64,000 nt of DNA from Sedimenticola selenatireducens DSM 17993 (GTDB lineage: Bacteria > Pseudomonadota > Gammaproteobacteria > Chromatiales > Chromatiaceae). Position 1 is the stretch's first letter, and every line of letters begins with the position of its first letter. The translations under genes and the position numbers were made by a program. The stretch covers positions 186,265 through 250,264 of the forward strand of contig NZ_ATZE01000001.1 in NCBI RefSeq assembly GCF_000428045.1, read 5' to 3'. Below the pieces are notes generated by a model. The model worked only from the letters and a program-made list of their open reading frames with translations, was not told the DNA's origin and did not search any database. Shown here piece after piece: positions 4,935 through 25,587 of the stretch.

Positions 4935-5301
4935 AGTGCCATCCTTGCGCAGGCGTTGGTTTGTCGGCTTGTCGCTCATCACTGTCGGTCTGATCTTTGC
5001 TATGGGTGCGCTTCTCTGGCAGGTGGCGGAACTCTCGTCTCTCTCTGCTATATCGGAACAGGTTACACGCTTGAAACCTTTTGCCGGTGTCACCCGACTC
5101 CTACTCATCGCAATGCTGGCGGTCCTCTGGCCTAGACTGGTTGATCTGACAGTCCGCGCTGGGCGAGTTGATCCGACAGAACGATCCCAACTACTCGCAC
5201 TTCGTTGGCGTGTTGTCGCCTGGCTGCTGATCATCGAACTGATGATCGGTCAGGATCTCTTCGGCCGGTTTTTCCTGGCAACCAGCGGGCCTGTCGCATG
5301 A
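4924..5301 (+). CDS. Small inner-membrane protein of the conjugation operon
   Basis: This is a 125-residue protein starting at GTG 4924, eleven bases inside the upstream gene. Three hydrophobic segments are visible: FVGLSLITVGLIFAMGALLW, LLLIAMLAVLWPRLV and VVAWLLIIELMIG. No catalytic motif is present. Its position between the PFL_4711-type and TraG_N-type genes is typical for a small integral membrane component of this ICE class; I cannot assign it to a named family. Its stop overlaps the next ATG. Confidence 0.7.
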   Translation: MFNKVPSLRRRWFVGLSLITVGLIFAMGALLWQVAELSSLSAISEQVTRLKPFAGVTRLLLIAMLAVLWPRLVDLTVRAGRVDPTERSQLLALRWRVVAWLLIIELMIGQDLFGRFFLATSGPVA

Positions 5302-8788: not shown

Positions 8789-9628
8789 ATGGGCGCAATA
8801 TCGAATCTGAATTTCGAAGCGGGGATCATTGGTTTGGCGGCAGGCCAGGCTATGGCGTGGGGATTTCGGTCGGGTGAACGGGGTACTCACACCAGCCGCA
8901 CCATGATGCTCGATGAGCTGTCGCATTTACTGGAGACCGTGCCCGGTGACGTTTCTCGTGAGCAGTATGCTGAGGCGGTCATGGATTATAACTGCCTGGG
9001 CAAGCGCACGGCCGCGACGCGCAAGCTTTCCTTGCAGCGCCTCACTGAGCTTTACGCCCTCGAGCCTCAAGTGATTCTGTTCCGGGTGCTGAGGGATCTC
9101 TGGGGAAGAAACGAGACCAGCCGTCCGCTTCTGGCATTGTTGCTAGCCTTGGCAAGGGACCCCTTGCTCAGGACCACCGCCACTGCTGTTATCCGTACCC
9201 CCTATGGTCACGAGTTCGCCCGGCAGTCCATGAAGGATGCCCTTACTGCCGCTGTTGGTGATCGCCTGAATGAAGCAACTCTCGATAAGGTCGTGCGTAA
9301 TTCATCTTCGTCGTGGACCCAGTCCGGGCATTTTCACGGTAGAGGGCGCAAGACCAGACAGAAAGTTGAGGCGACACCCGCCGCGACGGCATTCGCTCTA
9401 CTGCTCGGATTTGCAGTGGGGCGGCGTGGACGTTTGCTGTTCGAAACGCCATGGGCCGCTGTCCTCGACGCCAATCCCGATGAGCTCATCGATATGGCGG
9501 TCGACGCCAAACGGTTAGGGCTGCTCGATCTCAAACAGTCCGGTTCGATGATCGATGTGTCATTTCCGATACTGCTTACAGATAAAGAAAGGGAGCTGAT
9601 TCATGGGGCGCATCGACAGGCTGGCTGA
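8789..9628 (+). CDS. First gene of the BREX operon, in the brxA position (BrxA-like, not confirmed)
   Basis: This is a 279-residue soluble protein. Segments include VMDYNCLGKRTAATRKLSLQ, the conserved-looking SRPLLALLLALARDPLLR (about residues 111-128) and a C-terminal helical part ending just over the brxB start. In type 1 BREX the gene before brxB is brxA, a DNA-binding protein (DUF1819, usually about 200 residues). This protein is longer, and I could not confirm that family from sequence alone. Overlap with brxB (start at 9603) shows it belongs to the operon. It could be a divergent BrxA or a BREX-specific replacement. Confidence 0.6.
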   Translation: MGAISNLNFEAGIIGLAAGQAMAWGFRSGERGTHTSRTMMLDELSHLLETVPGDVSREQYAEAVMDYNCLGKRTAATRKLSLQRLTELYALEPQVILFRVLRDLWGRNETSRPLLALLLALARDPLLRTTATAVIRTPYGHEFARQSMKDALTAAVGDRLNEATLDKVVRNSSSSWTQSGHFHGRGRKTRQKVEATPAATAFALLLGFAVGRRGRLLFETPWAAVLDANPDELIDMAVDAKRLGLLDLKQSGSMIDVSFPILLTDKERELIHGAHRQAG

Positions 9629-10172
9629 GCGCTACAAGAGTTATATCTCTCTGCCGTGGCAGAAGGACCTGGCCGGCGCCCAGCGAGCCATCTTTGTCGT
9701 GTACGACAAGGCTGACGAACGCCGGTTACGGGCACGGAAAGACCTGTTCGCACTGTCAACGGCAGAAACAGGCCACGGGTGGCTCGAATGCGACTTAACG
9801 CAGGTCTTTGCCCAGTGGATGGCTGCAACGAATTATCGCGACAGCTACTTCGAGTCTCCGGAGGATCTGGAACTCAAGCTGGAGGACGATTTTCTCGAGC
9901 ACGTGGCCGATCGCGTGAGAGAGGTGTTGAATGCACCGGAAGCCGATGAGAATTCGGTCGTCGGTGTCTTTGGCATTGCATCGCTGTTCGGATTTGTACG
10001 TGTGTCCGAGCTTATGAACGAGATAGAGCGGGATATCAAAGGCCGCGTGGTGGTGTTCTTCCCCGGTGAGTACGAAAACAGCAACTATCGGTTGCTGGAC
10101 GCAAGGGATGGGTGGAACTACCTCGCAGTCCCGATCACCTTGCACGAAGATCGAGGAGTGTACGAGGTATGA
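9603..10172 (+). CDS. brxB: BREX protein BrxB (DUF1788)
   Basis: This is a 189-residue protein with the conserved C-terminal pattern of DUF1788/BrxB: GIASLFGFVRVSELMNEI, then GRVVVFFPGEYENSNYRLLD and GWNYLAVPI. BrxB is a core BREX component needed for host methylation and phage exclusion, with no known enzymatic activity. It overlaps the preceding gene by 26 bases and its stop overlaps the brxC ATG, so it is translationally coupled on both sides. Confidence 0.9.
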   Translation: MGRIDRLAERYKSYISLPWQKDLAGAQRAIFVVYDKADERRLRARKDLFALSTAETGHGWLECDLTQVFAQWMAATNYRDSYFESPEDLELKLEDDFLEHVADRVREVLNAPEADENSVVGVFGIASLFGFVRVSELMNEIERDIKGRVVVFFPGEYENSNYRLLDARDGWNYLAVPITLHEDRGVYEV

Positions 10173-13100: not shown

Positions 13101-13612
13101 AAGAAACGCAACCACAGATTGAGGCCATTGCCGCAAATCGCAGCCTACTGGATTCGGCCGATCCGGTGCCCGATCTGGCCAAAACGCTGGCGGATGCCTT
13201 GCGTGCCGCGCTGGCAGGGGCAGAGAAGCACTATGCGGAGATTTTCGAACAAGAATCGACGCGATTGGAGGCCGCAGAGAGCTGGCAGAAGGTCGAGCAG
13301 ACCGAGCGTGATCGGATCCTGAAAGGATTGAATATCGTCAAGGTCTCGAAGGGCGCAACGGGCACCGAGCAGGAGGTGCTCGATTCACTGGATCGAATCT
13401 CACTGGATGCCTGGAGGACCAAAACGGCTGCCTTACCGCAGCTATTCGCGGATGCCCGCATCCAGGCGGACAAGCTGGTGGAGCCCAAGACCCATCACGT
13501 CAAGCTGGGCAGCGCCACGCTGCGAACGCCCGAAGAGGTGCAGGCCTGGGTGAAAAAGACCGAGCAGGAGCTGCTTGAGCAACTCAAGCATGGACCCGTT
13601 GTGGTGTCATAG
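10169..13612 (+). CDS. brxC: BREX ATPase BrxC
   Basis: This is a 1147-residue large P-loop ATPase (DUF499/BrxC-PglY class). The N-terminus MKNRDIYQRDPGKITLLNNG matches the family as I know it. Walker A GFFGSGKSHLAK lies at about residues 76-87 and a Walker B-like VIILDEVQQYIGDD near residue 265. The C-terminal third is helical and acidic. BrxC is essential for BREX restriction and is thought to work with PglX and PglZ on DNA. I chose ATG 10169, overlapping the brxB stop by four bases; an upstream in-frame ATG at 10112 would lie wholly inside brxB. Length fits type 1 BrxC. Confidence 0.93.
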   Translation: MKNRDIYQRDPGKITLLNNGVATMTDALTDDERRTLRFELEHFVCEGEYQRGLVRILDSYVSNQGQPEQPAAWVSGFFGSGKSHLAKMLRFLWTDYTFPEDGASARGLARLPTDVQDLLKEITTLGKRAHGLHAAAGTLGAGAGDSVRLALLGIAFKSAELPESYPQARFCIWLRKNDIYDQVCAAVEADGRDFRRELNDMYVSPLIAKALLAADPNFATSEKEARAALRAQFPKPKDITTDEFVAVLQETLAPDGETPCAVIILDEVQQYIGDDTSRSYIVQEVVEACSKRFGDRLLFLGTGQTALSGTPALQRLQGRFTVNVELSDTDVETVTRRVVLAKRPDRVNDVKSTMDGNAGELDRHLVGTKIGPRSEDKSVLVEDYPLLPVRRRFWEHALRAVDRAGTAGQLRTQLRIVYDAIRRTADDPVGTVVPADFLFEEISANLLQSGVLLREVNETIVEQDDGTPDGRLKSRLCALVFLIRKLPREAGVDIGVRATADALADLLVKDLAKDGAALRGQLPKLLDELVAAGTLMKLDDEYSLQTRESSEWEAEFRNRQTKLVNDPTRMSSKRAQLLGAAVQDAIGSVKLLHGKCKEPRKLALHFGSEPPQGTAHEIPVWIRDGWGSDEKSVIADARAAGPDSPVIHVFVPKSRADSLARVVAAQSAAKDTLEYKGVPSTPEGIEARQGMETRLTEASNSLRTLVAEVVDGAKVYQGGGSERLEVSLLEKVREAANASLDRLFYDFKDSDDHRWPKVIERARKGAEHPLEALDYSGKTEDHPVCSAVLSFVGSGKKGKDIRSHFSDPPYGWSRDAVDAALISLFGTGHLRATTSGTPFKPGQLDQAKVSSTDFRVESATIDTRQRLKVRKLFQTGAMACKPNEEAAAAGEFLSKLSELARGAGGEAPLPERPDTSHLLDLQSFAGNEQLVGILNRHDELLKNIEDWTKARDLAEKRLPAYKRLLSLARHAEGLDSAKETQPQIEAIAANRSLLDSADPVPDLAKTLADALRAALAGAEKHYAEIFEQESTRLEAAESWQKVEQTERDRILKGLNIVKVSKGATGTEQEVLDSLDRISLDAWRTKTAALPQLFADARIQADKLVEPKTHHVKLGSATLRTPEEVQAWVKKTEQELLEQLKHGPVVVS

Positions 13613-13620
13613 GGGCAGGG

Positions 13621-16600
13621 ATGAAGACGCTATCAACAGAGTTCCGCCGACAACTCGAGCGAACGGTCGTTGCGGCCCGCGATATCGCCGAGGCCGGGGC
13701 GAAGGTGGCGCTCGAAGCGCTTGCCGTACAGCACCATGAACCCTATGGCCACATGGATGGGGCGCAACGCACCCTGCGCCGACGGCTCCGCGCCCATGCA
13801 CGCCAGCTCGGCGACCGGCCGGATGCTCGCTCGGGTGGTCACGGTATTGACCACCTTGTTCACGAGTGCGCCTACGAGCACTGGCACGGCATGCTGTTTG
13901 CCCGGTTTCTTGCAGAGAACCACCTGCTGATCGAGCCCGAGATGGATGTCGCCATCACGCTGGATGAGTGCGAGGAGTTGGCGAAGGAAGCGGGTATAGA
14001 CAAATGGGCACTGGCGGCTCGCTTTGCGCACCGCATGTTGCCGCAGGTGTTTCGGCCGGATCACCCCGTGTTCGTGGTTCAGTTTGCCCGCGAACACCGG
14101 CTGAAGCTAGAAAAGCTGGTCGAGGGGCTGTCGGCAGAGATGTTTCTGGCGACGGATGCACTTGGCTGGGTTTATCAATTCTGGCAGACGCGAAAGAAGG
14201 GCGACGTCAACGCCGCCGGAAACAAAATTGGTGCGGACGAACTGCCCGCGGTTACGCAGCTGTTCACCGAGGACTACATGGTGGACTTTCTGCTCGATAA
14301 CACGCTTGGCGCATGGCACGCGGGTAGGGTTCTCGCCGCGAATCCAAAATTGGCCGATACCGCACAGAGCGAGGACGAACTTCGCCGAGCAGTGTCGCTG
14401 CCCCGCTGCCCGTGGGAATATCTCCGCTTCATCAAAGACCAGGGTGACAAGTGGGTGCCCGTTGCCGGCAAGTTTGACTGCTGGCCCAAAGCTGCGAGTG
14501 CTCTCAAGGTACTCGACCCATGCATGGGCAGTGGACACTTCCTGGTGGCGATGTTCGAGCGGCTTGTCGCGCTTCGGATGAATGAGGAAAGCCTAGATGA
14601 GCAGGAAGCGGTATCAGCGGTCATTCGCGACAACATTTACGGGCTGGAGCTTGACCCGCGCTGTACGCAGATAGCCGCGTTTAACGTGGCACTGGTGGCG
14701 TGGCGGCGAGTGGGCCACTGTGGGTTGCCTGCAATGAACCTGGCCTGCTCAGGCATCGCTCCCAATACACGTGAAACCGATTGGGTCGGGATTGCGGGTA
14801 ACGACCAGAATCTTAAGCACGACATGGAACGTCTGTACCGTTTGTTCAAGAACGCGCCAGTATTGGGTAGCCTCATAAATCCACGTGTTGGTGAAGATGA
14901 TCTTTTTGTGGCTGCGTACCATAAACTCCAGCCGCTACTGGAAAGCGTACTTGCGAAAGAGACGAATGACGACCCTGCGTTTGAGATGGCGGTTACCGCG
15001 AGCGGTCTGGCTAAGGCGGCTGAAATACTCGCGAGCCAGTTCACACTCGTCGCCACCAATGTGCCTTACCTGAAGGCGGAGAACCAAGGGCCGGAGCTAA
15101 AAGAGTTCATTGAGGTAAATTTCAATGATGCAAAAGCCGACCTCGCAACGGCGTTCGTTAGAAGATGGTTTTCAATCCGCTCGCAGAACGCTTGTCTTGC
15201 CGTTGTGTTGCCACAGAATTGGCTGTCACAGCCGAGATACTTGAAGTTTCGTGACGCCCTAATCGAAGCAGGAGGAATCAGCTGCATCGCGAGGCTCGGC
15301 CCGCGGGCTTTCCAATCAATAACAGGCGAAGTCGTAAACGTCCTTCTTGGCGTATTTGCTCCGCTGCAAGCAGGAACTCGTGCGTGGGGTCTCGACACGA
15401 CAACCGAGAAGACTCCCGACTCAAAGAAAACAAAACTGCTCGAGGGGAGTTGGTCCGGGCTTCAACTGAGAGGTTCGGCGGGAGGGACACGAGATAATCG
15501 AATTTCCTTTTTAGATTCCGATGGTGAGGATTCGTTGGCCTCGATGGGGCGGACTTTCAAAGGCATTACCTCGAACGATGACCCGAGTTTTCTGCGGTGT
15601 TTTTGGGAGTTGGATCGCTGTCCGGCAAATTGGGAGTTCCACCTAACCGCTGTCGAAGGATCAGCTGTGTATGGTGGTCGCAGTAATCTCATCCTATTTG
15701 AGGGGGGAAGTGGGAGGATGCGGGCGCTCTCGGCAAGCCAATCTAAGGATCGGAAAAGAGACCTGCAAGGAAACCAGGCTTGGGGAAAGCGCGGAATAGC
15801 GATTTCGCTGATGGGCAGCTTTCCGGTTACGCCGTATTGTGGAGAAAAGTTCGACACAAACGTTGCTGTGTTTCTCCCCACTGATGCAGCACGCAATCCC
15901 GCGCTGTTTGCATATTTTTCCGACCCTGAGTTTGCCACAGATTTGAGGTCTGTGGATGGTGCATTAAAGCTAACCAATTCCTCGATTAAGGCAGTTTCCT
16001 TTGACCTTGTGCACTGGCAAGAGGTCGCAGCGGAGAAATATAGACACGGATTGCCGAAGCCGTTCTCCAGTAACCCGACGCAATGGCTGTTCAACGGCCA
16101 TCCGGCCGGGGCAGATCAGCCTTTGCATGTGGCCGTGGCGCGCTTGCTCGGTTATCAGTGGCCGCGTCAGACCGGGTCAAGTTTTCCCGATTGCCCGGCA
16201 CTCGGGCTGGATGGTCTGGAAAAGCTGGCGGATAGCGATGGGATTGTTTGTATTCCTGCCGTTCGCGGCGAGCGCCCTGCGCACGAGCAAGTGTTGCAGA
16301 TGCTGCAGGCCGCCTATGCACCCTCACCCCCGGCCCCTCTCCCGGAAGGAGAGGGGGGATGGAATGACGGCATACTTGCGAAGCTGCTGGCCGATACAGG
16401 CAGTTCAAATCTCGATGACTGGCTGCGTGACGGATTCTTCGAACAGCACTGCAAGCTGTTCCACCACCGCCCCTTCATCTGGCACATCTGGGACGGTCGC
16501 AAGCGTGACGGCTTCCATGCCCTTGTCAACTATCACAAAATCGCCGGGAGCGATTTTGAACAGCCGCAGGCTGGCCCGAAGGGCGAATCCCAGGGACGGG

Positions 16601-17115
16601 GTTCGCACAAGCTCGCCGAAGGCGACGGCAAGGGCCGGCGCCTGCTGGAGTCCCTCACCTATAGTTACCTTGGCGACTGGATAACCCGGCAGCAGGATGG
16701 TGTGAAGCGCGCTGAAGATGGCGCTGAGGATCGTCTGGCCGCCGCGCTGGAGTTGCAGAAGCGCCTCGTCGCCATACTCGAAGGCGAACCGCCGTTTGAC
16801 ATCTTTGTCCGCTGGAAGCCAATTGAAGAACAGCCTATCGGCTGGGAGCCGGACATCAACGACGGCGTGCGCCTGAACATTCGCCCCTTCATGGCCCAGG
16901 ACATCCCCGGCGGAAAGAAAGGTGCCGGCATCCTGCGGACGAAGCCGAACATCCACTGGAAGAAAGACCGCGGCAAAGAACCTTTGCGCGATCAGGCTCA
17001 GTTCCCCTGGTTCTGGAAGGACGGGAAGTTCACCGGCGAACGGGTTAACGACGTGCATCTGTCGAATGCGGAAAAGCAAATAGCCCGCGAGCGGGTGGAG
17101 GGTAAGTCATCATGA
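13621..17115 (+). CDS. pglX: BREX adenine-specific DNA methyltransferase PglX
   Basis: This is a 1164-residue N6-adenine methyltransferase. The SAM-binding motif I LDPCMGSGHFLV lies at about residues 298-309 and the catalytic motif IV appears as TNVPYL (about 479-484), the NVPY form usual in PglX rather than NPPY. PglX methylates a non-palindromic site to mark self DNA and is also required for defence. It begins nine bases after brxC. Around residues 902-914 the sequence reads PSPPAPLPEGEGG; this is encoded by a GC-rich hairpin repeat (16321-16359) that looks inserted in frame. The stop overlaps the ATG of the next gene. Confidence 0.93.
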   Translation: MKTLSTEFRRQLERTVVAARDIAEAGAKVALEALAVQHHEPYGHMDGAQRTLRRRLRAHARQLGDRPDARSGGHGIDHLVHECAYEHWHGMLFARFLAENHLLIEPEMDVAITLDECEELAKEAGIDKWALAARFAHRMLPQVFRPDHPVFVVQFAREHRLKLEKLVEGLSAEMFLATDALGWVYQFWQTRKKGDVNAAGNKIGADELPAVTQLFTEDYMVDFLLDNTLGAWHAGRVLAANPKLADTAQSEDELRRAVSLPRCPWEYLRFIKDQGDKWVPVAGKFDCWPKAASALKVLDPCMGSGHFLVAMFERLVALRMNEESLDEQEAVSAVIRDNIYGLELDPRCTQIAAFNVALVAWRRVGHCGLPAMNLACSGIAPNTRETDWVGIAGNDQNLKHDMERLYRLFKNAPVLGSLINPRVGEDDLFVAAYHKLQPLLESVLAKETNDDPAFEMAVTASGLAKAAEILASQFTLVATNVPYLKAENQGPELKEFIEVNFNDAKADLATAFVRRWFSIRSQNACLAVVLPQNWLSQPRYLKFRDALIEAGGISCIARLGPRAFQSITGEVVNVLLGVFAPLQAGTRAWGLDTTTEKTPDSKKTKLLEGSWSGLQLRGSAGGTRDNRISFLDSDGEDSLASMGRTFKGITSNDDPSFLRCFWELDRCPANWEFHLTAVEGSAVYGGRSNLILFEGGSGRMRALSASQSKDRKRDLQGNQAWGKRGIAISLMGSFPVTPYCGEKFDTNVAVFLPTDAARNPALFAYFSDPEFATDLRSVDGALKLTNSSIKAVSFDLVHWQEVAAEKYRHGLPKPFSSNPTQWLFNGHPAGADQPLHVAVARLLGYQWPRQTGSSFPDCPALGLDGLEKLADSDGIVCIPAVRGERPAHEQVLQMLQAAYAPSPPAPLPEGEGGWNDGILAKLLADTGSSNLDDWLRDGFFEQHCKLFHHRPFIWHIWDGRKRDGFHALVNYHKIAGSDFEQPQAGPKGESQGRGSHKLAEGDGKGRRLLESLTYSYLGDWITRQQDGVKRAEDGAEDRLAAALELQKRLVAILEGEPPFDIFVRWKPIEEQPIGWEPDINDGVRLNIRPFMAQDIPGGKKGAGILRTKPNIHWKKDRGKEPLRDQAQFPWFWKDGKFTGERVNDVHLSNAEKQIARERVEGKSS
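16334..16356. repeat. Palindromic repeat inside pglX (9-bp stem)
   Basis: CCCCTCTCC-CGGAA-GGAGAGGGG is a perfect 9-bp stem with a 5-base loop, preceded by CCCTCACCCCCGG. This resembles the short dispersed CCCTCTCCC...GGGAGAGGG repeats normally found between genes in many gammaproteobacteria. Here it is read through in frame and adds a Pro/Glu/Gly-rich loop to PglX. Confidence 0.6.
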
Positions 17116-19913
17116 CAAACAGTGTGCAACCAGACTGGCTCTGGCCAGGCTCCCGCTGGTGGAAGTTTGATTTCCATACCCATACGCCCGCGTCCACCGA
17201 TACGCCTTGGGCGAAGCAGAACCTCGCGCTTTCACCGGAAGACTGGTTGCTAAAATATATGGCAGCCGGCGTCGACTGCGTCGCGGTGACCGACCATAAC
17301 AGTGGCGCCTGGATCGATGGTCTCAAAGTTGCTTACGATCAGATGAAACAGCAGGCCGAGAACGGAACACCGCCCGGCGGCTTTTGCGAGATGACGCTGT
17401 TCCCGGGGGTGGAAATCTCCGTCAATGGCGGATTTCACCTGCTCGCCATCTTCGATCCATCGGCGACGACCAGCGACATCGATTCCTTGCTGGGCAAGGT
17501 TGACTACCAAGGCACAAAGGGCGATAGCGACGGGGTGACGCGCGCCAGCGCCATTCAAGTCGTGCAAGCCGTACTGGATGCCGGCGGCATCCCAATCCCG
17601 GCCCATGCTGATGATGGCGGCAAGGGGTTGCTTCGAGTCAATGCCGGGACGCGGGAGTGTGCTCTTGACGCCAACACGGTTCGCCAAGTTATGGATATGG
17701 AACATCTGTTGGCGGTGGAGTGGCTGGATAACACAGTGCCCACGCCGGCATGTGTAGAAAAGCAGACTGAGCGACTCGCACGAATCCTTGGCAGTGATTG
17801 CCACAGTTTTCAAGGCAATGCTGTACCCGGGTCTCGCTTTACCTGGATCAAGATGGCGATCCCCACCCTTGAAGGGCTGCGCCTCGCACTGCTGGATGGC
17901 AATGGCATCTCGGTCCGTCGGAGCGAGGAAGGGGCGTTTGAGCCGTTTCAGACGCCGGCGAACTTCATCACCAGCATTGAAGTCGAGTCCGCCCGCTTCA
18001 TGGGTAACGGCACGGCTGAGCACATTGCATTCAGCCCCTACTACAATGCGCTGATTGGAGGGCGTGGAACGGGCAAATCTACTGTCGTCCACGCTTTCAG
18101 GCTCGCATACCGGCGAGATGAAGAGCTTCGGCGCTTAGGCGATAAATCGGAACCCTATCGCCGATTCAGCAGCTTTTCAGAGACAGTGAAAGGGCATGAC
18201 GGCAATGGCGCGCTTCGCGAGAGCACTGAAATCCGCCTCCAGTTGATGCGCGATGGGGTTCTGAACCAGCTTCGTTGGCGTCAAAACGGTGCAGGTATTG
18301 TCGTTGAGGAACAAGGCGAAGACGGTGTTTGGCGTGCATCATCCAGCCAAACCGTCTCCGGCGAGCGTTTTCCAGTTCGCATCTTCTCTCAAGGGCAGAT
18401 TGCGGCAATGGCGGGAGAGAGTCGCCAGGCCCTACTCGATGTTATCGATGAGGCTGCCGAGGTTGGTGATCTCCATCGTAACTTTGAAGAGGTGAAACGG
18501 TCCTATTTCTCGCAGCGAGCGCGGTTGCGTGAGTTGGACGGAAGACTGGACGGTAGATCCGAGCTGGAACGAAAGCTGGCCGATCTCAATCGCAAGATTG
18601 AAGCGCTTTCACAGTCCCATCATGCCGAGGTGTTGAAGGCCCATCAGCAGGGACTCAAACAGCAGCGTGAAGTAAATACCACCATCGAACAGTTGCAGGC
18701 CACACCTGATCGCATTGAGTCCCTGGCACAGGATCTACTGCTCGACGACTGGCCTGATGGCACCTTCAATGCGGAACAGGATGCGGACGCGCTTGCGTGG
18801 CGGGCCGAAGCAGAAGGGGCATTGCGAGAGGCCCGTGAGGCGCTTGCAATGGCTGCGCAAGCGCTGACTGCTAAGGTGCAGGCGCTCAACGAGGATCGAC
18901 GCTTGGCAGATTGGCGGCAACGCGCGGGCAAAGCGCAGGCGGAGTATCAGGCATTGCAAGCCGCCCTTGCCGAGCAGGGCGTTATGGATCCGCAAGCCTT
19001 TGGTCGCCTGGTGCAAGAGCGCCAGCAGCTGGAGGGACAGTTGAAGCTGCTCGACCGGATTCAGCAGGACCGGGAGCAGTTGGAGGCCGAGAACGCGATC
19101 CAGTGGGTCCGAGTGCTTGATGCGCGTATCTCCATCACCACAAGGCGCTCGGAGTTTGTATCGACGACGTTGGAGGCCAATGCGTTCGTACGTATGGACG
19201 TGATTGGCTTCGGATTTGATGCGCGCAGTATTGAGCGCAATTTGCGCGATCTTCTGGATGTGCAGGACGACCGGTTTGAAAGCGATATCTTGCGGTTTGA
19301 TGCTGGCGAGCCCGCAGGAGGGCTCGCACTTGATTTGGCTAGTGCCGTTGAACGTGCTGATGTTGTGGAAGACGTCAAGCGCCGACTGATCGAGCTGGAT
19401 GTGGCTGGTGGTCACTTTAGAAATTACCTACAGCGTAAATTGGATAAGCCGGAATTCGCCGACCACATTCGTTGCTGGTTCCCCGATGATGATCTGCGCA
19501 TTGAGTACAGCCGCTCAGGAGATGGCCGAGACTGGTCTGCCATTACGCAAGGCTCGCAGGGCCAGCGCTCGGCGGCGTTGCTGGCATTTCTGCTCGCGTT
19601 CGGTGACGAGCCGCTGATCCTCGATCAACCCGAGGACGATCTGGACAACCATCTGATCTATGAACTTATCGTCCGCCAGATCCGCGAGAACAAGCGTCGT
19701 CGGCAACTGATCATCGTGACGCATAACCCCAACGTTGTGGTGAACGGTGACGCAGAGATGGTGCACGCCTTTGATTTCCGTGGTGGTCAATGCCGCGTCA
19801 TCGAGCAAGGGGCCTTGCAGGAGAAGGCGGTACGTGAAGAGGTCTGCCGCGTCATGGAGGGCGGTCGCGAGGCATTCTCGCGGCGCTGGGCGCGCTTGGG
19901 TCGGGAGGTCTGA
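17112..19913 (+). CDS. PHP-domain and SMC/ABC-type ATPase fusion (TrlF-like), embedded in BREX
   Basis: This is a 933-residue two-part protein. The N-terminal PHP phosphoesterase domain (about 15-285) shows metal-ligand motifs DFHTHTPAS (H22, H24), AVTDHNS (D61, H62) and LGSDCHSF (about 225-232). The C-terminal part is an SMC/RecN-like ATPase with Walker A GGRGTGKST (about 316-324). A long coiled-coil region follows (about 470-670), then a signature-like SQGQRSAALLAF, Walker B LILDQPEDD (about 835-843) and a THNPN switch. PHP domains hydrolyse phosphoesters and SMC-type ATPases bind DNA ends, so a nucleic-acid nuclease sensor is inferred. It overlaps pglX by four bases and is followed directly by the AlbA_2 gene. 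It is not a core BREX gene. Confidence 0.85.
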   Translation: MTNSVQPDWLWPGSRWWKFDFHTHTPASTDTPWAKQNLALSPEDWLLKYMAAGVDCVAVTDHNSGAWIDGLKVAYDQMKQQAENGTPPGGFCEMTLFPGVEISVNGGFHLLAIFDPSATTSDIDSLLGKVDYQGTKGDSDGVTRASAIQVVQAVLDAGGIPIPAHADDGGKGLLRVNAGTRECALDANTVRQVMDMEHLLAVEWLDNTVPTPACVEKQTERLARILGSDCHSFQGNAVPGSRFTWIKMAIPTLEGLRLALLDGNGISVRRSEEGAFEPFQTPANFITSIEVESARFMGNGTAEHIAFSPYYNALIGGRGTGKSTVVHAFRLAYRRDEELRRLGDKSEPYRRFSSFSETVKGHDGNGALRESTEIRLQLMRDGVLNQLRWRQNGAGIVVEEQGEDGVWRASSSQTVSGERFPVRIFSQGQIAAMAGESRQALLDVIDEAAEVGDLHRNFEEVKRSYFSQRARLRELDGRLDGRSELERKLADLNRKIEALSQSHHAEVLKAHQQGLKQQREVNTTIEQLQATPDRIESLAQDLLLDDWPDGTFNAEQDADALAWRAEAEGALREAREALAMAAQALTAKVQALNEDRRLADWRQRAGKAQAEYQALQAALAEQGVMDPQAFGRLVQERQQLEGQLKLLDRIQQDREQLEAENAIQWVRVLDARISITTRRSEFVSTTLEANAFVRMDVIGFGFDARSIERNLRDLLDVQDDRFESDILRFDAGEPAGGLALDLASAVERADVVEDVKRRLIELDVAGGHFRNYLQRKLDKPEFADHIRCWFPDDDLRIEYSRSGDGRDWSAITQGSQGQRSAALLAFLLAFGDEPLILDQPEDDLDNHLIYELIVRQIRENKRRRQLIIVTHNPNVVVNGDAEMVHAFDFRGGQCRVIEQGALQEKAVREEVCRVMEGGREAFSRRWARLGREV

Positions 19914-19914
19914 C

Positions 19915-21177
19915 ATGTTTGCGACACGCAGCGAGTTGCTGGAGAAGATTCGTTTGGGCGAAGACAATTTCCTGGAGTTGAAGGAGGTTCGTTTCGCCGG
20001 CGGCAAGATACGTGGGCCGGAGCAGAATGACCTTGCCGATGAATTGGCCGCCTTTGGCAATACCCGCGGTGGTGTGCTGCTCCTGGGCGTCCATGACAAG
20101 ACTCGCGAGGTGCTGGGAATCCCCGTCGATCGGCTCGATGCCGTTGAGGCGCTGGTACGCCAGGCCTGCGAGGATTCGATCAAGCCACCTGCTGCGCCCG
20201 TGATTGAACGCCTTAGCCTGTCCGACAGCGCTGGCGTCGAACAACCGGTGATTCGTGTCGAGGTCCCACCCAGCCTATTTGTGCACCAAAGCCCGGGCGG
20301 ATATTTTCACCGTGTTGGATCGTCGAAGCGGCCGATACCGCCCGATCAACTGGCTAGATTGTTCCAGCAGCGTAGTCAGGCACGATTGATTCGTTTCGAT
20401 GAGACGCCGGTCCCGCGAGCAACGCTGGCGGATCTGGACGAAGCACTGTGGCGACGATTTGCTACGCCGCGGTCAACCGACGCATCGGAGCAGCTGCTAT
20501 CCAAACTTGCCATGGCTTCGCAAGATGATGCCGGCGTGTGGCGGCCCACAGTGGCCGGCGTGCTTCTGGCTTGTCGGGAACCCGAACAATTTCTGTCCAG
20601 TGCATTCATTCAAGCCGTCGCATATCAAGGTACGGCGATTTCACCGCAAATGGAATCGGCGTACCAACGTGATGCCCGAAATATCACCGGTTCTCTGGAT
20701 CGCCAGATCTTCGAGGCTTGCGATTTCATTCGAAAGAACATGCGGGTAGCAGCCAAGAAGAGCTCGGAGGGTGGACGCGAGGATATTCCGCAGTTTGACA
20801 TGCTTTCCGTCTTCGAAGCGGTCACCAATGCGGTAGCGCATCGCGACTATTCGATGGCGGGGAGCAAAGTGCGCCTTCGGTTATTCGATGATCGCTTGGA
20901 GTTGTACACGCCGGGACTCCTGCCCAACACCATGACCCCAGAAAGCCTGCCCTATCGGCAAGCCGCTCGAAACGAAGCCATTACCAGTCTGCTGGCGCGT
21001 TGCCCCGTCGAACGAGACGACTTCAAGAGCCATCGCACACACATTATGGACAAACGGGGAGAAGGAGTACCGATCATCCTATCTCGAAGCGAACAGCTTT
21101 CAGGCAAGATTCCAGAATATCGCCTGATCGACGAATCGGAGCTGCTGTTGAAAATCTATGCCGCGGCTGTTTCTTGA
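19915..21177 (+). CDS. AlbA_2/Schlafen-type protein with RecG-like C-terminal HATPase domain
   Basis: This is a 420-residue protein of the COG2865 type. The N-terminal AlbA_2 (Schlafen-like) domain, about residues 10-130, starts with EDNFLELKEVRF and includes LAAFGNTRGGVLLLGVHD. The C-terminal half contains EAVTNAVAHRDYS (about 300-312), as in the HATPase_c_4 domain, then a winged-helix-like tail. Such proteins bind nucleic acid and are often annotated as transcriptional regulators; some Schlafen relatives are nucleases. It begins one base after the stop of the PHP-ATPase gene and runs into the pglZ start region, so it forms a two-gene cassette with its neighbour inside the BREX operon. Confidence 0.85.
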   Translation: MFATRSELLEKIRLGEDNFLELKEVRFAGGKIRGPEQNDLADELAAFGNTRGGVLLLGVHDKTREVLGIPVDRLDAVEALVRQACEDSIKPPAAPVIERLSLSDSAGVEQPVIRVEVPPSLFVHQSPGGYFHRVGSSKRPIPPDQLARLFQQRSQARLIRFDETPVPRATLADLDEALWRRFATPRSTDASEQLLSKLAMASQDDAGVWRPTVAGVLLACREPEQFLSSAFIQAVAYQGTAISPQMESAYQRDARNITGSLDRQIFEACDFIRKNMRVAAKKSSEGGREDIPQFDMLSVFEAVTNAVAHRDYSMAGSKVRLRLFDDRLELYTPGLLPNTMTPESLPYRQAARNEAITSLLARCPVERDDFKSHRTHIMDKRGEGVPIILSRSEQLSGKIPEYRLIDESELLLKIYAAAVS

Positions 21178-21187
21178 GGCCGAACCA

Positions 21188-23536
21188 GTGTTGGACATTC
21201 GAGAAGCCGAAAAAAAATTAACGGTAGTCGAGGCTCTGGTGCTGTCACTCGAGCGTGCTGCCAGGTTCAATCCAAACGATGTTGTACACCCGTATGCCAT
21301 CTTGTGGACTGATCATGATTCACAGTGGCAGCCGATCATTCCCCAACTCCGCCGCTTGCTGCCCCAGCTGTTGACTTTCGGTGAATACCAGCCCGAGCAG
21401 CGAATAGGGCCGGCCATCTGGCTGCGTAGTGTTGTAGACAGGGCGTTACCGGAAGTTGAAATACCTGACGGGACGACGCCGATCGTGTACCTGCCGGCAG
21501 TGAGCCGGCAGGTACTACGGGCAATCGAGGAGTGCCCAGATCGCCTCAAGCCGCTGGTGGAGCTCCAATATCGTGGCGTTTGCTGGACGCAGAAGAACGG
21601 CAAGGACTGGACTGTCGAAGCCTTCCTGGTGGCGGAGGAAGGAGGCCTTGGGTTGGACGTGGCGCGTGATGCGACCACTCGTCGTGCCATGCTCGGCGCA
21701 TTGGCAGAACTGGCCACGACGTCGGTTGATAGGCTGCGGGGAAAACATCTCGAGGCCGAGGATTTCGACAAGCTCTTTTCCGACGATCCGGCAAAGGATC
21801 TGTTGCTCTGGTTGAGCGATCCGGAGACGGCAAAGACGGGGTGGAACGGAGGACGTTGGGCCGCTTTTAAGTCCCGCTGTAAGGCGGACTTCAAGTTTGA
21901 TCCGGACAAGGACGGCGAGTTGGTCGGTGCGGAGCTACTCGGCAAGCGGGAAGGTCATTGGGCCATAGTATGGGAGCGATTTTCCGAGTCGCCTGTGCTC
22001 TATCCCGGCATACCGGAGCTGTTGCGTCAGGCAATGCCGGGCGATCTGTTCATCGAGCCTTCTTCCTGGCCTCAGAACAATGAGAGTGAAGAGACAACGC
22101 TGCGGAAAGCGCTGTTTGGGCTTGAGAAGGCGACGCCCGCTGATGGGCGTAAACGGATCCTTGAGCTCGAGAAGTTACATGGTCTAAGACGGGAGTGGGT
22201 CTGGGCGAAGTTAGGGCAGGCACCACTCGCGGTAGCCCTGGGCCATCTGGCAGCTATTTCCGAACACGCGAGCTCCAAGCTGGGCGGTGCCTCGACTGCT
22301 GAAATGGCAAAACTATATGTCGATGCTGCATGGGAAGTCGATACTGCAGCGTTGTCTGCGATGGCTTCGATCAAGTCTACTGCCGATGCGCAAGCAGTGG
22401 GGAAGGCATTGAACGCTGTTTATCGGCCGTGGCTTGAGTCAGCAGCAGAACATCTTCAGCAGTTGGCTGAGAAAGAACCGCTGCCTGGACACATTGGCCA
22501 GGGGCTGGAGGACGTCATCGTTGAATCAGGCGGTCTGATTCTATTTGCTGATGGACTTCGATTCGATGTATCTCAGCGCCTCGTCGAACACATGCGATCG
22601 AAAGATTGGTCAGTTACTATGTCAACCCGGTGGGCAGGACTGCCTACCGTAACCGCAACGGCCAAGCCGGCGGTTTCGCCCGTTTCAGATGGCATCAAAG
22701 GTTTGTCACTCGGAGAGGATTTTCTCCCTGTTATGGCTGATACGAACCAGCCGTTAACCACGGACAGGTTTCGAAAACTGCTGAAGTCGGCGGGATACCA
22801 ATACCTGAGTGCCGACGAAACGGGTGATCCCTCGGGGCGTGGCTGGACGGAAAACGGCGAGCTCGACAAATTGGGTCACTCCCTGCAGGGAAAACTCGCC
22901 GGCAGTGTGGAAGAGCAGATTGATCTGATTCTGGAACGTATCGAGACATTGCTCGATGCCGGCTGGCGTGAGATTCGTGTGGTAACAGACCACGGCTGGC
23001 TCTGGCTGCCTGGCGGGTTGCCGAAGGTTGATTTGCCCAAGTATCTGACAGCAAGTCGCTGGGCCCGTTGCGCAGCGATCAAAGGGGCATCCAAGGTGGA
23101 TGTGCCCACCGTGCGATGGCACTGGAATGCTCACCAACAGGTTGCAGTGGCCCCTGGGATTTCCTGTTTCGGCGCCGGCAATGAATACGCACACGGTGGA
23201 CTGAGTCTGCAAGAGAGTCTGGTCCCTGTCATCCGGGTGACCGCGGGTGAGACAAAAGCCAAGGCAGCTGTAAAGATTGCAGATCTCTTCTGGGCAGGGC
23301 TGCGTTGTCGTGTGCGGATTGAAGGAGCACAGCCTGGATTGTCTGTGGATCTGCGGTTGAAGGTGAATGACCCGGAATCTTCCGTGACTAAAACACGGCC
23401 GGTTGACGCCGATGGGGCAGCCAGTTTGCTGGTGGCAGATGACGAATTGGAGGGTACGCCGGCGGTTCTAGTGGTATTGGATGCCAGCGGCCATGTGATT
23501 ATGAAACAACCCACGATCATCGGGGGTGACGATTGA
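21188..23536 (+). CDS. pglZ: BREX phosphatase-domain protein PglZ
   Basis: This is a 782-residue protein with an alkaline-phosphatase-like PglZ domain in its C-terminal half: ILFADGLRFDVSQRLVEH (about 452-469), LPTVTATAKPAVSPV and VVTDHGWLWLPGGLPK (about 598-613). PglZ is a core BREX protein required for both methylation and phage exclusion. I chose GTG 21188 because GAGG stands eight bases before it. An in-frame ATG at 21158 adds ten residues but has no ribosome site and lies inside the AlbA_2 gene. The stop overlaps the brxL start. Confidence 0.9.
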   Translation: MLDIREAEKKLTVVEALVLSLERAARFNPNDVVHPYAILWTDHDSQWQPIIPQLRRLLPQLLTFGEYQPEQRIGPAIWLRSVVDRALPEVEIPDGTTPIVYLPAVSRQVLRAIEECPDRLKPLVELQYRGVCWTQKNGKDWTVEAFLVAEEGGLGLDVARDATTRRAMLGALAELATTSVDRLRGKHLEAEDFDKLFSDDPAKDLLLWLSDPETAKTGWNGGRWAAFKSRCKADFKFDPDKDGELVGAELLGKREGHWAIVWERFSESPVLYPGIPELLRQAMPGDLFIEPSSWPQNNESEETTLRKALFGLEKATPADGRKRILELEKLHGLRREWVWAKLGQAPLAVALGHLAAISEHASSKLGGASTAEMAKLYVDAAWEVDTAALSAMASIKSTADAQAVGKALNAVYRPWLESAAEHLQQLAEKEPLPGHIGQGLEDVIVESGGLILFADGLRFDVSQRLVEHMRSKDWSVTMSTRWAGLPTVTATAKPAVSPVSDGIKGLSLGEDFLPVMADTNQPLTTDRFRKLLKSAGYQYLSADETGDPSGRGWTENGELDKLGHSLQGKLAGSVEEQIDLILERIETLLDAGWREIRVVTDHGWLWLPGGLPKVDLPKYLTASRWARCAAIKGASKVDVPTVRWHWNAHQQVAVAPGISCFGAGNEYAHGGLSLQESLVPVIRVTAGETKAKAAVKIADLFWAGLRCRVRIEGAQPGLSVDLRLKVNDPESSVTKTRPVDADGAASLLVADDELEGTPAVLVVLDASGHVIMKQPTIIGGDD

Positions 23537-25587
23537 AAGTAGAACTCGATCCACTTGACCGTCTGGCGGCGACGGCGTTTGAAGGTTACCTTGTCCGCAA
23601 GGACCTGGTGCGGAAATATAGCCGTCAGTATCCGGTTCCGACATACGTGGTGGAGTTCCTCCTGGGACGCTACTGCGCGAGCACGGACGATCAGGAGATT
23701 GAAGAAGGGCTGACCATCGTCGAGCGTCAGCTCTCCGATCGGACGGTCCGTACGGGCGAAGAGGAGTTGTTCAAAGCGCGGTCTCGTGACAAGGGTTCGA
23801 TCAAGCTGATCGATATCGTCCGTGCCAAGCTTGACGCCAAAACCGACTCTTTCGTCGCTGAGTTACCGAGTCTGGCGATTAAGGATGTACGAATAGAAGA
23901 TAGCCTGGTCAAGCAACACGAGCGTATGCTGACAGATGGTTTCTATGCAGAAGTGACATTGAGCTATGACGCCGCGATTGCTCAGGAGAAAAGCGGGCGA
24001 CCCTTTGCCATAGACAGTCTGCGCGCCATTCAGCTTTCCAAAGCCGATGTACTGGATACGCTCAAGCGCGGCCGTCACGATTTCACTACGGAGGAGTGGA
24101 AACGTGTTCTGCTGCGTAGCGTCGGTCTGGAGCCGGCCGCATTGTCGGAGCGTGCACAACAGGTCGCGCTCGTCAGGATGGTGCCGTTCGTGGAGCGCAA
24201 CTACAACATGGTCGAGCTGGGTCCACGCGGAACGGGGAAGAGCCACCTTTACCAGCAGATATCTCCGTATGCACACCTGATCTCCGGCGGCAAAGCGACC
24301 GTTGCCAAGATGTTCGTCAACAATGCGAATGGTCAGCGTGGTTTGGTGTGTCAATACGATGTCGTTTGCTTCGACGAAATCTCCGGCGTCTCGTTCGATC
24401 AAAAGGACGGCGTCAACATCCTCAAGGGTTACATGGAATCCGGCGAGTTCTCCCGCGGCAAGGAAAGCATCCGTGCCGAGGGTGGGATCGTCATGGTCGG
24501 CAATCTCGATGTCGAGGTCGAGCATCAGCAGCGTGTAAGTCACCTCCTGAGTCCTCTCCCACCAGAGATGAGAGACGATACCGCCTTTATGGACCGGATC
24601 CACGCCTACGTGCCCGGTTGGGACTTCCCCAAGCTCAACCCAAACGAGCACTTTACCGACCATTTTGGATTGGTGAGCGACTTCCTGTCCGAGTGTTGGA
24701 GCAGGTTGCGCACGGGTAGCCGTATTTCGGTGCTGCAGGGGCGAGTGAATTTTGGCGGCGCACTCAGCGGCCGTGATATCACGGCGGTCAACAAGACCGT
24801 AAGTGGCCTGTTGAAGCTGCTGTATCCCGATCCGGAGATGGCGGTGCCGGACGAAGAACTGGAAGAGATGGTTCGTGTCGCCCTTGAAGTCCGTCGCCGA
24901 GTGAAAGAACAACAGAAGCGCGTGTTCAAGAGTGAATTCCGGAATACGCACTTCAGCTATGCGATGGGTGAGGACGGTGTGGAGAAATTCGTATCAACGC
25001 CAGAGCTCCACAGCGACGAAGCCATTGAGTTGGATCCGCTGCCACCCGGACAGGTGTGGGGAATCAGTCCTGGTGGAGCGGAAACCGGCCCCAGTCTGTA
25101 TCGACTCGAAGTGACGGCAGGGAAGGGCAGTGGCGTCAAAATTCTGAATGCTCCGGTTCCACCGGCGTTCCGCGAAAGCGTCCGGTACGCCGAGCAGAAT
25201 CTGTACACAAGGGCAAAGCAATTGGTAGGCGATCGAGACCCACGCTCCCATGATTTTTCCTTGCAACTTCGTGCTATGGATAACGACCGCGGTGGAACCT
25301 CTCTCGGCTTGCCCGTTCTGATGGCCCTTTGTAGCAGCTTGCTCGAAAAAAGTACGAAGGGTGGTCTGATTGTCGTCGGCGCCCTAAACCTTGGTGGATC
25401 GGTGGAACCTCTGGTAAATGCGGTCGGTATCGTTGAAGTCGCTGTAGAGAAAGGTGCCGATACGGTGTTGATGCCGGTGTCCGCCCGTAAACAGCTGTTC
25501 GAGCTTTCGGACGACATGGCAACGCGGATCAATATCCAGTTCTATTCAGATACGCCGGATGCATTGCTGAAGGCGCTACTTGAGTAG
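23533..25587 (+). CDS. brxL: BREX AAA+ / Lon-like protein BrxL
   Basis: This is a 684-residue protein that marks type 1 BREX. Its AAA+ core has Walker A GPRGTGKSH (about 230-238) and Walker B VVCFDEIS (about 277-284). A C-terminal Lon-like domain has GGTSLGLPVLMALCSSLL and GADTVLMPVSARKQL. BrxL forms ring oligomers on DNA in characterised systems. The start is TTG 23533, overlapping the pglZ stop, with a GGGGGTG stretch just upstream. The Lon Ser position seems present (TSLG), but where Lon has its catalytic Lys this protein reads GGSVEPLVNAVG, so protease activity is doubtful. It is the last gene of the operon. Confidence 0.92.
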   Translation: MKVELDPLDRLAATAFEGYLVRKDLVRKYSRQYPVPTYVVEFLLGRYCASTDDQEIEEGLTIVERQLSDRTVRTGEEELFKARSRDKGSIKLIDIVRAKLDAKTDSFVAELPSLAIKDVRIEDSLVKQHERMLTDGFYAEVTLSYDAAIAQEKSGRPFAIDSLRAIQLSKADVLDTLKRGRHDFTTEEWKRVLLRSVGLEPAALSERAQQVALVRMVPFVERNYNMVELGPRGTGKSHLYQQISPYAHLISGGKATVAKMFVNNANGQRGLVCQYDVVCFDEISGVSFDQKDGVNILKGYMESGEFSRGKESIRAEGGIVMVGNLDVEVEHQQRVSHLLSPLPPEMRDDTAFMDRIHAYVPGWDFPKLNPNEHFTDHFGLVSDFLSECWSRLRTGSRISVLQGRVNFGGALSGRDITAVNKTVSGLLKLLYPDPEMAVPDEELEEMVRVALEVRRRVKEQQKRVFKSEFRNTHFSYAMGEDGVEKFVSTPELHSDEAIELDPLPPGQVWGISPGGAETGPSLYRLEVTAGKGSGVKILNAPVPPAFRESVRYAEQNLYTRAKQLVGDRDPRSHDFSLQLRAMDNDRGGTSLGLPVLMALCSSLLEKSTKGGLIVVGALNLGGSVEPLVNAVGIVEVAVEKGADTVLMPVSARKQLFELSDDMATRINIQFYSDTPDALLKALLE

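What the first reader, a model, noticed from the sequence alone, without database searches (positions are those of the whole stretch)
17112..21177. Two-gene PHP-ATPase plus AlbA_2 cassette embedded in a BREX operon
A PHP-phosphoesterase/SMC-like ATPase and an AlbA_2/HATPase protein sit between pglX and pglZ with tight overlaps on both sides. Other BREX loci carry a separate defence system at this place (for example PARIS in Salmonella). A PHP nuclease-like domain plus SMC ATPase plus nucleic-acid-binding partner has the layout of an independent anti-phage system. The genes may guard BREX or act as a second layer. Their activity is not shown by the sequence.
Basis: partly seen in the sequence, partly recalled or inferred. 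Interest (0 to 1): 0.85.

Follow-up and report, generated by a model that had tools for sequence, protein, structure and literature searches.

The report
Swappable defence cassette inside BREX operon
Two genes sitting in the middle of a bacterial anti-virus operon look like a separate, swappable back-up weapon that has been plugged into several different kinds of DNA-marking immune systems.

Summary
In detail: in a type 1 BREX operon, pglX and pglZ enclose a PHP + SMC-like ATPase (TrlF family, NF045780, 604 bits against a cut-off of 350) and a Schlafen/AlbA_2 + HATPase protein (TrlG type). The pair is not a fixed BREX part. Of 67 PglZ-B BREX loci with both flanks visible, 15 have an empty junction and 52 carry genes, among them TrlF+TrlG (6), TrlF+GmrSD (5), Schlafen-cluster genes without TrlF (7), Septu-like, HEC-01-like, SIR2-HerA and Fic genes. 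The nearest relative in view (BrxL 95%) is empty; two others (BrxL 92%) carry a TrlFG about 29% alike. Of 31 other TrlF loci found by a TrlF search, 21 have TrlG next door; 1 of these is seen in BREX. A close relative sits in a DUF499/DUF1156 operon, remoter pairs inside type I R-M operons beside a PrrC-like gene. Best reading: a portable PrrC/PARIS-like guard, TrlF sensing, TrlG a Schlafen RNase; activity is untested. A two-gene insert at this junction, Schlafen genes around BREX, and TRL as a growth-arrest operon are published: new variant of a known kind.

The parts
8789..9628 (+). brxA
   Evidence: PADLOC BrxA 329 bits
9603..10172 (+). brxB
   Evidence: PADLOC BrxB 259 bits; PF08747
10112..13612 (+). 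brxC (start as listed by the ORF listing)
   Evidence: NF033441 807 bits
13621..17115 (+). pglX methyltransferase, left flank of the slot
   Evidence: PADLOC PglX 1444 bits; NF033452 259 bits, under its cut-off of 500
17112..19913 (+). TrlF-family protein: PHP domain + SMC/Rad50-like ABC ATPase with coiled coil
   Evidence: NF045780 604 bits; motifs; AF2 pLDDT 68.8, Foldseek to Wadjet JetABC, SMC, Rad50
19915..21177 (+). TrlG-type protein: Schlafen AlbA_2 domain + GHKL/HATPase_c_4
   Evidence: PF04326, PF13749; triad E16/E21/D61 aligned with SLFN13; AF2 pLDDT 78.2; Foldseek best to 3lmm (uncharacterised), then SLFN5/11/12/13/14 and SAMD9
21158..23536 (+). pglZ type B, right flank of the slot
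   Evidence: NF033450 937 bits
23533..25587 (+). brxL
   Evidence: TIGR02653 638 bits

Best explanation
The two genes are a portable back-up module (TrlFG) plugged into the pglX-pglZ cargo slot of a PglZ-B BREX operon and probably co-transcribed with it. Shown: domains, intact active-site residues, empty and alternatively filled slots in related BREX loci, and occurrence inside other methylation-based systems. Inferred: TrlF is an SMC-like ATPase sensor that keeps TrlG in check. When a phage blocks or overruns the parent system, or presents a DNA state that TrlF recognises, ATP turnover releases TrlG. TrlG then cuts tRNA or rRNA through its Schlafen site and stops translation, as PrrC does beside type I R-M and PARIS does beside BREX. 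In this copy the PHP site is also intact, so TrlF may add a metal-dependent phosphoesterase step. I put about 0.95 on the cassette and slot part, about 0.55 on an RNase-based guard, and about 0.35 on the trigger being inhibition of the parent system.
For: Slot: 15 of 67 determined PglZ-B loci empty, 52 filled with different genes. Nearest relative in view, L083 (BrxC 88%, BrxL 95%), is empty; L084/L085 (BrxL 92%) hold a TrlFG 28-30% alike. Mobility: the BREX/other label changes at least 7 times on the TrlG tree (58 rows) and 6 on the TrlF tree (53 rows), counting starred branches only. The pair in other modification systems: IncC plasmid hsdR-trlF-trlG-hsdS-PrrC-like-hsdM (the 95% identical gene of L190 is annotated anticodon nuclease; PF13166); viral-collection contig L236 hsdM-hsdS-PrrC-like-trlF-trlG-hsdR; L169 DUF499-trlF(70%)-trlG(80%)-DUF1156; L055 MmeI MTase-helicase-GIY-type gene-trlF-trlG. 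Fold and triad of TrlG. Both HxH histidines of the PHP motif are lost in 12 of 55 TrlFs and all 12 have a partner nuclease next door (7 TrlG, 5 GmrSD). Growth arrest by a TrlF-TrlG operon, lifted by trlG mutation or operon deletion (PMC7554251, passages, section 9 and section 10 part 1).
Against: No activity, target or trigger is shown. Of 19 non-BREX TrlG loci at 40% identity or more, 12 have no PF02384/PF01555 methyltransferase within 10 kb, though some of these lie near contig ends; nesting in methylation systems is frequent, not universal. Of 18 viral-collection TrlF loci mapped, only 1 has TrlG beside it. Over all TrlG rows the E/E/D triad is complete in 41 of 66: the TRL-like pYR3 copy has Q in second place, the IncC copy and L190 have Q and N in second and third, and eight rows of the L059 group have K in third, so either the catalytic role varies or the alignment does. 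Of 13 TrlFs with no TrlG or GmrSD neighbour found, 12 keep HxH but only 8 keep all seven PHP residues, so the link between PHP loss and a partner is loose. Models rest on 10-14 sequences. Trees are quick searches with long-branch warnings. Many slot genes were not matched to any known family.
Confidence: 0.55

Rival explanations
1. TrlF is the effector: an SbcCD-like machine in which the SMC-type ATPase feeds DNA to the PHP phosphoesterase, as one would expect for the single-gene Ppl; TrlG is an accessory or regulator.
For: The PHP metal site is complete here. TrlFs without a TrlG or GmrSD neighbour keep HxH in 12 of 13 rows, all seven residues in 8 of 13. The E. coli IncF relative at 50% identity has no TrlG in the stretch shown. 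The fold resembles Rad50 and Wadjet JetABC.
Against: HxH is lost in the TrlFs of two BREX-slot groups that keep the ATPase and a partner nuclease. TrlG lies next door in 21 of 31 TrlF loci. Of the growth-arrest suppressors published, those that regrew carried trlG mutations, none in trlF (PMC7554251).
Confidence: 0.25
2. The pair is an accessory BREX subunit of this subtype that helps BREX itself (DNA sensing, remodelling or regulation), not a separate weapon.
For: Tight overlaps on both sides; the same place in 6 of 67 determined loci, plus the window, L066, L167 and L171.
Against: 15 of 67 loci have nothing there, including the nearest relative in view; the pair also occurs with no BREX gene found nearby; the Salmonella pair at this junction is not needed for modification (PMC9009780).
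Confidence: 0.1
3. Defence-island hitch-hiking: the slot is simply a permissive insertion point and the pair acts wholly independently, without sensing the parent system.
For: The cargo is very diverse. Some pairs show no modification gene: L068 is flanked by genes on the other strand, L059 lies beside UvrD- and RecD-type helicases and L044 beside a TPR gene.
Against: Repeated placement inside operons, with 4-nt overlaps in L163 (hsdR/trlF, trlG/hsdS), and 7 of 19 loci near a methyltransferase against 1.5 expected suggest coupling; island clustering could also give the second figure.
Confidence: 0.3
4. Toxin-antitoxin-like or stress-arrest module unrelated to phage, as in the temperature-restriction reading of TRL.
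For: TRL arrests growth of P. laumondii at 36 C (PMC7554251).
Against: Company of defence genes; carriage of TrlG and TrlF relatives on plasmids, of a TrlF/Ppl relative in a P2-like phage and on viral-collection contigs; TRL's own benefit is left open by its authors.
Confidence: 0.12

Closest known systems
TRL operon trlR-trlF-trlG of Photorhabdus laumondii (PMC7554251)
   Same: Same two protein families in the same order; TrlG has the same AlbA_2 + HATPase_c_4 layout. The Y. ruckeri pYR3 copy named in that paper is 30% (TrlF) and 32% (TrlG) identical to the window.
   Different: No trlR next to the pair here; embedded in BREX; the window keeps the second Schlafen carboxylate (E21), where pYR3 has Q. 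No phage role was proposed: 'phage' occurs 0 times in that text. The Photorhabdus proteins themselves were not compared.
Ppl anti-phage protein (NF042955; Gao et al. 2020, recalled)
   Same: PHP + SMC-like ATPase, 513 bits over the whole length.
   Different: About half the curated cut-off of 1000; Ppl is recalled as a single-gene system, here paired with TrlG.
PARIS (AriAB) of the Salmonella BREX island
   Same: Two-gene ATPase + second-protein insert at the same pglX-pglZ junction (PMC9009780; PARIS named in PMC12205998; that they are the same genes is inferred). PARIS cuts tRNA after sensing Ocr (as stated in PMC12839542).
   Different: Different ATPase type and a Schlafen instead of a TOPRIM/DUF4435 partner; AriA model only 42 bits.
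PrrC anticodon nuclease in type I R-M (recalled)
   Same: tRNase-type guard nested in a modification operon; TrlFG sits in the same operons as a PrrC-like gene in L163 and L236, and TrlG with such a gene in L190.
   Different: Split over two proteins, with a Schlafen rather than a PrrC nuclease domain.
Schlafen RNase-kinase modules of BREX and BREX-related loci (PMC12839542, section 35 part 1)
   Same: Schlafen + minimal histidine kinase + wHTH linked to core loci of BREX and BREX-related systems in at least 1017 taxa; proposed backup effector.
   Different: The paper's main text has no hit for PHP, AlbA, Trl or Ppl. In the passages I saw it does not tie the Schlafen to a PHP-SMC ATPase partner or to type I R-M with PrrC. 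Its supplements were not readable here.

Membership tests
TrlF family (NF045780) | score above curated cut-off 350, full length | tested here: met
   604 bits, 13-930 of 933
Ppl (NF042955) | score above curated cut-off 1000 | tested here: not met
   513 bits
TRL operon | trlF followed by trlG (AlbA_2 + HATPase_c_4) | tested here: met
TRL operon | small regulator trlR upstream | tested here: not met
   pglX ends 4 nt inside trlF
Schlafen RNase | SLFN/AlbA_2 fold | tested here: met
   PF04326 56 bits; Foldseek 5yd0 E 1.1e-5, 9o0d E 3.3e-4
Schlafen RNase | three-carboxylate triad as in rSLFN13 E205/E210/D248 | tested here: met
   E16, E21, D61 by alignment, with the numbering of chain 5yd0 counted by hand; residue roles in PMC5862951 (passages)
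Schlafen RNase | tRNA/rRNA cleavage | not testable with these tools
   bench assay needed
PARIS | AriA ATPase with TOPRIM/DUF4435 AriB | tested here: not met
   AriA 42 bits against Ppl 429 bits; no AriB model hit for the partner
Type 1 BREX (host operon) | brxA-brxB-brxC-pglX-pglZ-brxL | tested here: met
   PglZ type B
BREX core component | present in all loci of the subtype | tested here: not met
   TrlF+TrlG in 6 and an empty slot in 15 of 67 determined loci
PrrC-like guard (works like) | activated when the parent modification system is inhibited | not testable with these tools
   only nesting shown

The most novel reading that the evidence does not exclude
TrlFG is a general, portable guard of methylation-based immunity: a split, Schlafen-based counterpart of PrrC that has independently entered BREX, DUF499/DUF1156 BREX-related systems and type I R-M operons, with a relative beside an MmeI-type methyltransferase. 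TrlF can act through its own PHP site or lose it and hand the cutting to a partner nuclease (TrlG or GmrSD). The published 36 C growth limit of Photorhabdus would then be heat-triggered misfiring of such a defence module.
Probability: 0.27. Interest if true: 0.8.

Novelty: new variant of a known kind. Interest (0 to 1): 0.58.

Why it matters
It shows that one junction in BREX works as a cargo bay for back-up defences. It also points to a PHP-SMC/Schlafen pair shared by BREX, BREX-related and type I R-M operons, which makes 'who guards the modification system' directly testable. And it offers a phage-defence reading for a growth-arrest operon whose benefit was left open by its authors.

Tried and rejected
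A fixed BREX subunit was rejected because of empty and alternative slots. Recent foreign DNA judged by base composition found no support: G+C equals that of the core. Filing the first gene as Ppl was rejected on its cut-off. Filing the pair as PARIS was rejected. Searches for print on this pairing: BREX + PglZ + 'PHP domain' + ATPase, 0 papers; TrlF alone, 38 papers of which 20 were listed, one of these on this gene; BREX + TrlF, 0; BREX + pglX + pglZ + 'between pglX and pglZ' (3 of 4), 29 papers of which 28 were listed and three opened in part, PMC12839542, PMC9009780 and PMC12205998; trlG + Photorhabdus + phage, 0; Schlafen + anti-phage + bacterial + PHP + SMC (4 of 5), 5 listed, of which PMC12904381 was not opened; Schlafen + phage + tRNA + AlbA_2 (3 of 4), 22 of which 20 were listed; PrrC + type I restriction + Schlafen, 0; Ppl/PHP terms (4 of 5), 1, not opened; TrlF + ATPase, 2, neither on topic by title. 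These cover only the held open-access library, no preprints and no supplements. The bacterial Schlafen preprint (Taboada et al. 2025) was seen only as a reference in PMC12839542. The viral-contig scan with TrlG gave 15 remote loci (23-32%); the one of them in which my map shows BREX genes, L204, has a Schlafen between its PglX- and BrxL-like genes. Mapping the published TrlG substitutions through pYR3 gave a consistent -2 offset only for the seven positions from 193 on; on that proxy N335 and G354 would fall on window N353 and G384 (read by hand), which I hold as a hint only. Rows dropped: TrlG tree, 12 of 70 (5 under 340 aa, 6 remote, and L168, taken as the same contig as L087 from its length); TrlF tree, 13 of 66 under 780 aa; slot tally, 13 of 80 loci with no pglX found upstream; G705 left out of the methyltransferase count (not among the 28 genomes searched).
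Full report
What is there. The window holds a complete type 1 BREX operon on the + strand, brxA to brxL, 8789-25587. PglZ is NCBI's type B (937 bits). PglX is well matched by PADLOC (1444 bits) but only 259 bits to NCBI's BREX-1 PglX model, whose cut-off is 500. Between pglX and pglZ lie two genes. Gene 1 (17112-19913, 933 aa) is a TrlF-family protein (NF045780, 604 bits, cut-off 350); it scores 513 bits to Ppl, below that model's cut-off of 1000. Its PHP residues (H22, H24, H62, E101, H165, D229, H231) and its Walker A, signature and Walker B motifs are all present. Its low-confidence model (pLDDT 68.8, 10 sequences) resembles Wadjet JetABC, SMC and Rad50. Gene 2 (19915-21177, 420 aa) has SLFN_AlbA_2 and HATPase_c_4 domains above Pfam's gathering scores. 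Its model (pLDDT 78.2, 14 sequences) matches best an uncharacterised protein, 3lmm, then the N-terminal domains of Schlafens 5, 11, 12, 13 and 14 and the SAMD9 tRNase domain, and with weaker E-values GHKL kinases. Residues E16, E21 and D61 align with E205, E210 and D248 of rat SLFN13, which are needed for full cleavage activity there (PMC5862951, passages).

The junction is a cargo slot. I searched one genome per species (GTDB release 220, contigs of 3 kb or more) with an alignment of five PglZ-B proteins; 263 relatives were confirmed and the best 80 kept. In 67 of the 80 both pglX and pglZ are in view: 15 have 142 bp or less, or an overlap, between them, and 52 carry genes. Six have TrlF + a gene of the TrlG (Schlafen) cluster, five TrlF + GmrSD, seven a gene of the Schlafen cluster without TrlF, ten GmrSD without TrlF and twelve an ATPase of the Septu/HEC-01 cluster; these sets overlap. 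Fifteen hold none of these; among them are SIR2-HerA (L091), Fic (L095), AIPR (L125, L154) and DUF3644 (L141) genes. The labels rest on BLAST clusters with representatives checked by Pfam and PADLOC, not on a test of every protein; L145, counted in the Schlafen cluster, showed only the HATPase part. The nearest relative in view, L083 (BrxA 82%, BrxB 87%, BrxC 88%, BrxL 95%), is empty, while L084 and L085 (BrxL 92%) hold TrlF/TrlG only 28-30% identical to the window's. So within closely related BREX operons the slot is empty, filled by this lineage (L087, L167), or filled by another lineage.

The pair lives elsewhere too. A TrlF search of 398 genomes of the phylum gave 32 hits above the cut-off, the window included. 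Of the other 31, 21 have TrlG directly downstream and 1 of those 21 (L066) is in BREX. In 3 of the 21 (L057, L060, L069) the contig ends within 300 nt of TrlG, so a pglZ could be missed there; no pglX was found upstream. Across the loci fetched by then, a sample chosen by PglZ, TrlF or TrlG and so not a census, 27 adjacent pairs had no pglZ in reach and 12 lie in BREX, window included. On a quick maximum-likelihood tree of 58 TrlG proteins the BREX/other label needs 9 changes, at least 7 on starred branches; for 53 TrlFs it needs 7, at least 6. Both trees carry long-branch warnings. The closest TrlG to the window outside BREX in this sample (80%, with TrlF 70%) lies between a DUF499 and a DUF1156 gene (L169). 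DUF499 is the marker ATPase of what PMC12839542 calls DUF499-centred BREX-related systems, built of that ATPase, an N6-methyltransferase and a helicase (passages); that DUF1156 marks the methyltransferase is recalled. A 78% TrlG without TrlF lies behind helicase, N6-methylase and hsdS-like genes (L170).

Nesting in restriction-modification operons. On the IncC plasmid pNDM102337 the order is hsdR-trlF-trlG-hsdS-AAA ATPase-hsdM with 4-nt overlaps on both sides of the pair. The ATPase gene is PF13166, and its 95% identical counterpart in L190 is annotated 'anticodon nuclease'. A viral-collection contig, L236, has hsdM-hsdS-PrrC-like-trlF-trlG-hsdR; its PrrC-like protein is 36% identical to the first. 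L055 has an MmeI-type methyltransferase, a helicase and a GIY-type gene before the pair, and L043 an N6/N4 methyltransferase. To put a number on this I took the 19 non-BREX TrlG loci at 40% identity or more whose genomes I searched: 7 have a PF02384 or PF01555 methyltransferase within 10 kb against 1.5 expected from genome-wide densities (simulated P 0.0002; hits and misses read from the tables by hand). Twelve do not, L169 among them because its DUF1156 gene is matched by neither family, and some of the twelve lie near contig ends; I did not annotate the neighbours of most of them. Defence-island clustering could contribute to the excess. On the other side, only 1 of 18 mapped viral-collection TrlF loci has TrlG beside it.

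How it may work. One pattern bears on who cuts. In 55 aligned TrlFs both histidines of the first PHP metal motif (HxH) are lost in 12, in two sequence types, and all 12 have a partner nuclease beside them: TrlG in 7, GmrSD in 5. Of 13 TrlFs with no TrlG or GmrSD neighbour found, 12 keep HxH and one (L061) has lost one histidine; but 4 of those 12 have changed other PHP residues, so only 8 of 13 keep all seven. K322 is invariant in all 55. The reading I prefer is that the ATPase is the constant sensor and that the cutting can be done by the PHP site, by TrlG or by GmrSD. In the window both the PHP site and the Schlafen triad are intact. With the PrrC-like company and the PARIS precedent I infer a guard that fires when the parent system is blocked. 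The firing signal is not shown. Against the RNase reading, the complete triad is present in only 41 of 66 aligned TrlG rows: the TRL-like pYR3 copy has Q in second place, the IncC copy and L190 have Q and N in second and third place, and eight rows of the L059 group have K in third.

What is known. The gene names come from the TRL operon of P. laumondii, whose deletion or trlG mutation lifts a growth limit at 36 C (PMC7554251; passages, section 9 and section 10 part 1 read). Inserts at this BREX junction are known: ATPase + DUF4435 in S. Typhimurium, absent from E. coli HS and not needed for modification (PMC9009780, passages); PMC12205998's figure legend lists PARIS in the Salmonella island (passages), and I take the two to be the same genes. 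A January 2026 survey describes auxiliary nucleases across BREX, among them Schlafen RNases with a minimal kinase in at least 1017 taxa (PMC12839542, section 35 part 1); its main text has no hit for PHP, AlbA, Trl or Ppl. So the kind is known. What I did not find in print, within the searches listed under Tried and rejected, is the TrlF partner in this setting, the sharing of the pair between BREX, BREX-related and type I R-M operons, or a defence reading of TRL.

Verdict. Observation confirmed. Interpretation as a separate, exchangeable cassette well supported; anti-phage action and mechanism inferred only. New variant of a known kind, interest 0.58.

Noticed in passing
window 2443-3576 and 5205-6863: TraU and TraG_N conjugation genes lie just upstream of the BREX operon, so the operon may ride on an integrative conjugative element.
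   Followed up: no
window 7269-8261 (-): 330-aa ORF beside brxA without any PADLOC, Pfam or NCBIfam match at E 0.001; possibly a regulator of the island.
   Followed up: no
L080:6224-9410 (-), L127:5223-8298: An Hsp70-like protein with a 417-438 aa companion occupies the BREX slot in two loci; the companion of L080 matched only weakly, below its cut-off, a coiled-coil model.
   Followed up: partly
L066:4614-12391: One BREX slot holds AIPR/AbiU, Septu-like PtuAB and TrlF-TrlG in a row; its sister TrlF-TrlG outside BREX (L063) also lies next to PtuA/PtuB-like genes.
   Followed up: partly
L135, L136, L138, L149, L159: TrlF with a degenerate PHP motif is followed by a GmrSD-cluster gene instead of TrlG in the BREX slot.
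   Followed up: partly
L071, L072, L075-L078: A short TrlF-like ATPase (about 630-680 aa) without the PHP part is followed by 377-378 and 304-313 aa genes in these six loci; one search lists 12 rows below the TrlF cut-off.
   Followed up: no
L165 (Yersinia phage vB_YenM_42.18): A P2-like phage carries a TrlF/Ppl-like gene between its replication and portal genes, a place typical of phage-borne defence genes (recalled).
   Followed up: no
L170:10174-11666 (-): A type I-like R-M operon with TrlG carries a ClpP/SDH-type protease gene and a 172-aa unknown where TrlF would be expected.
   Followed up: no
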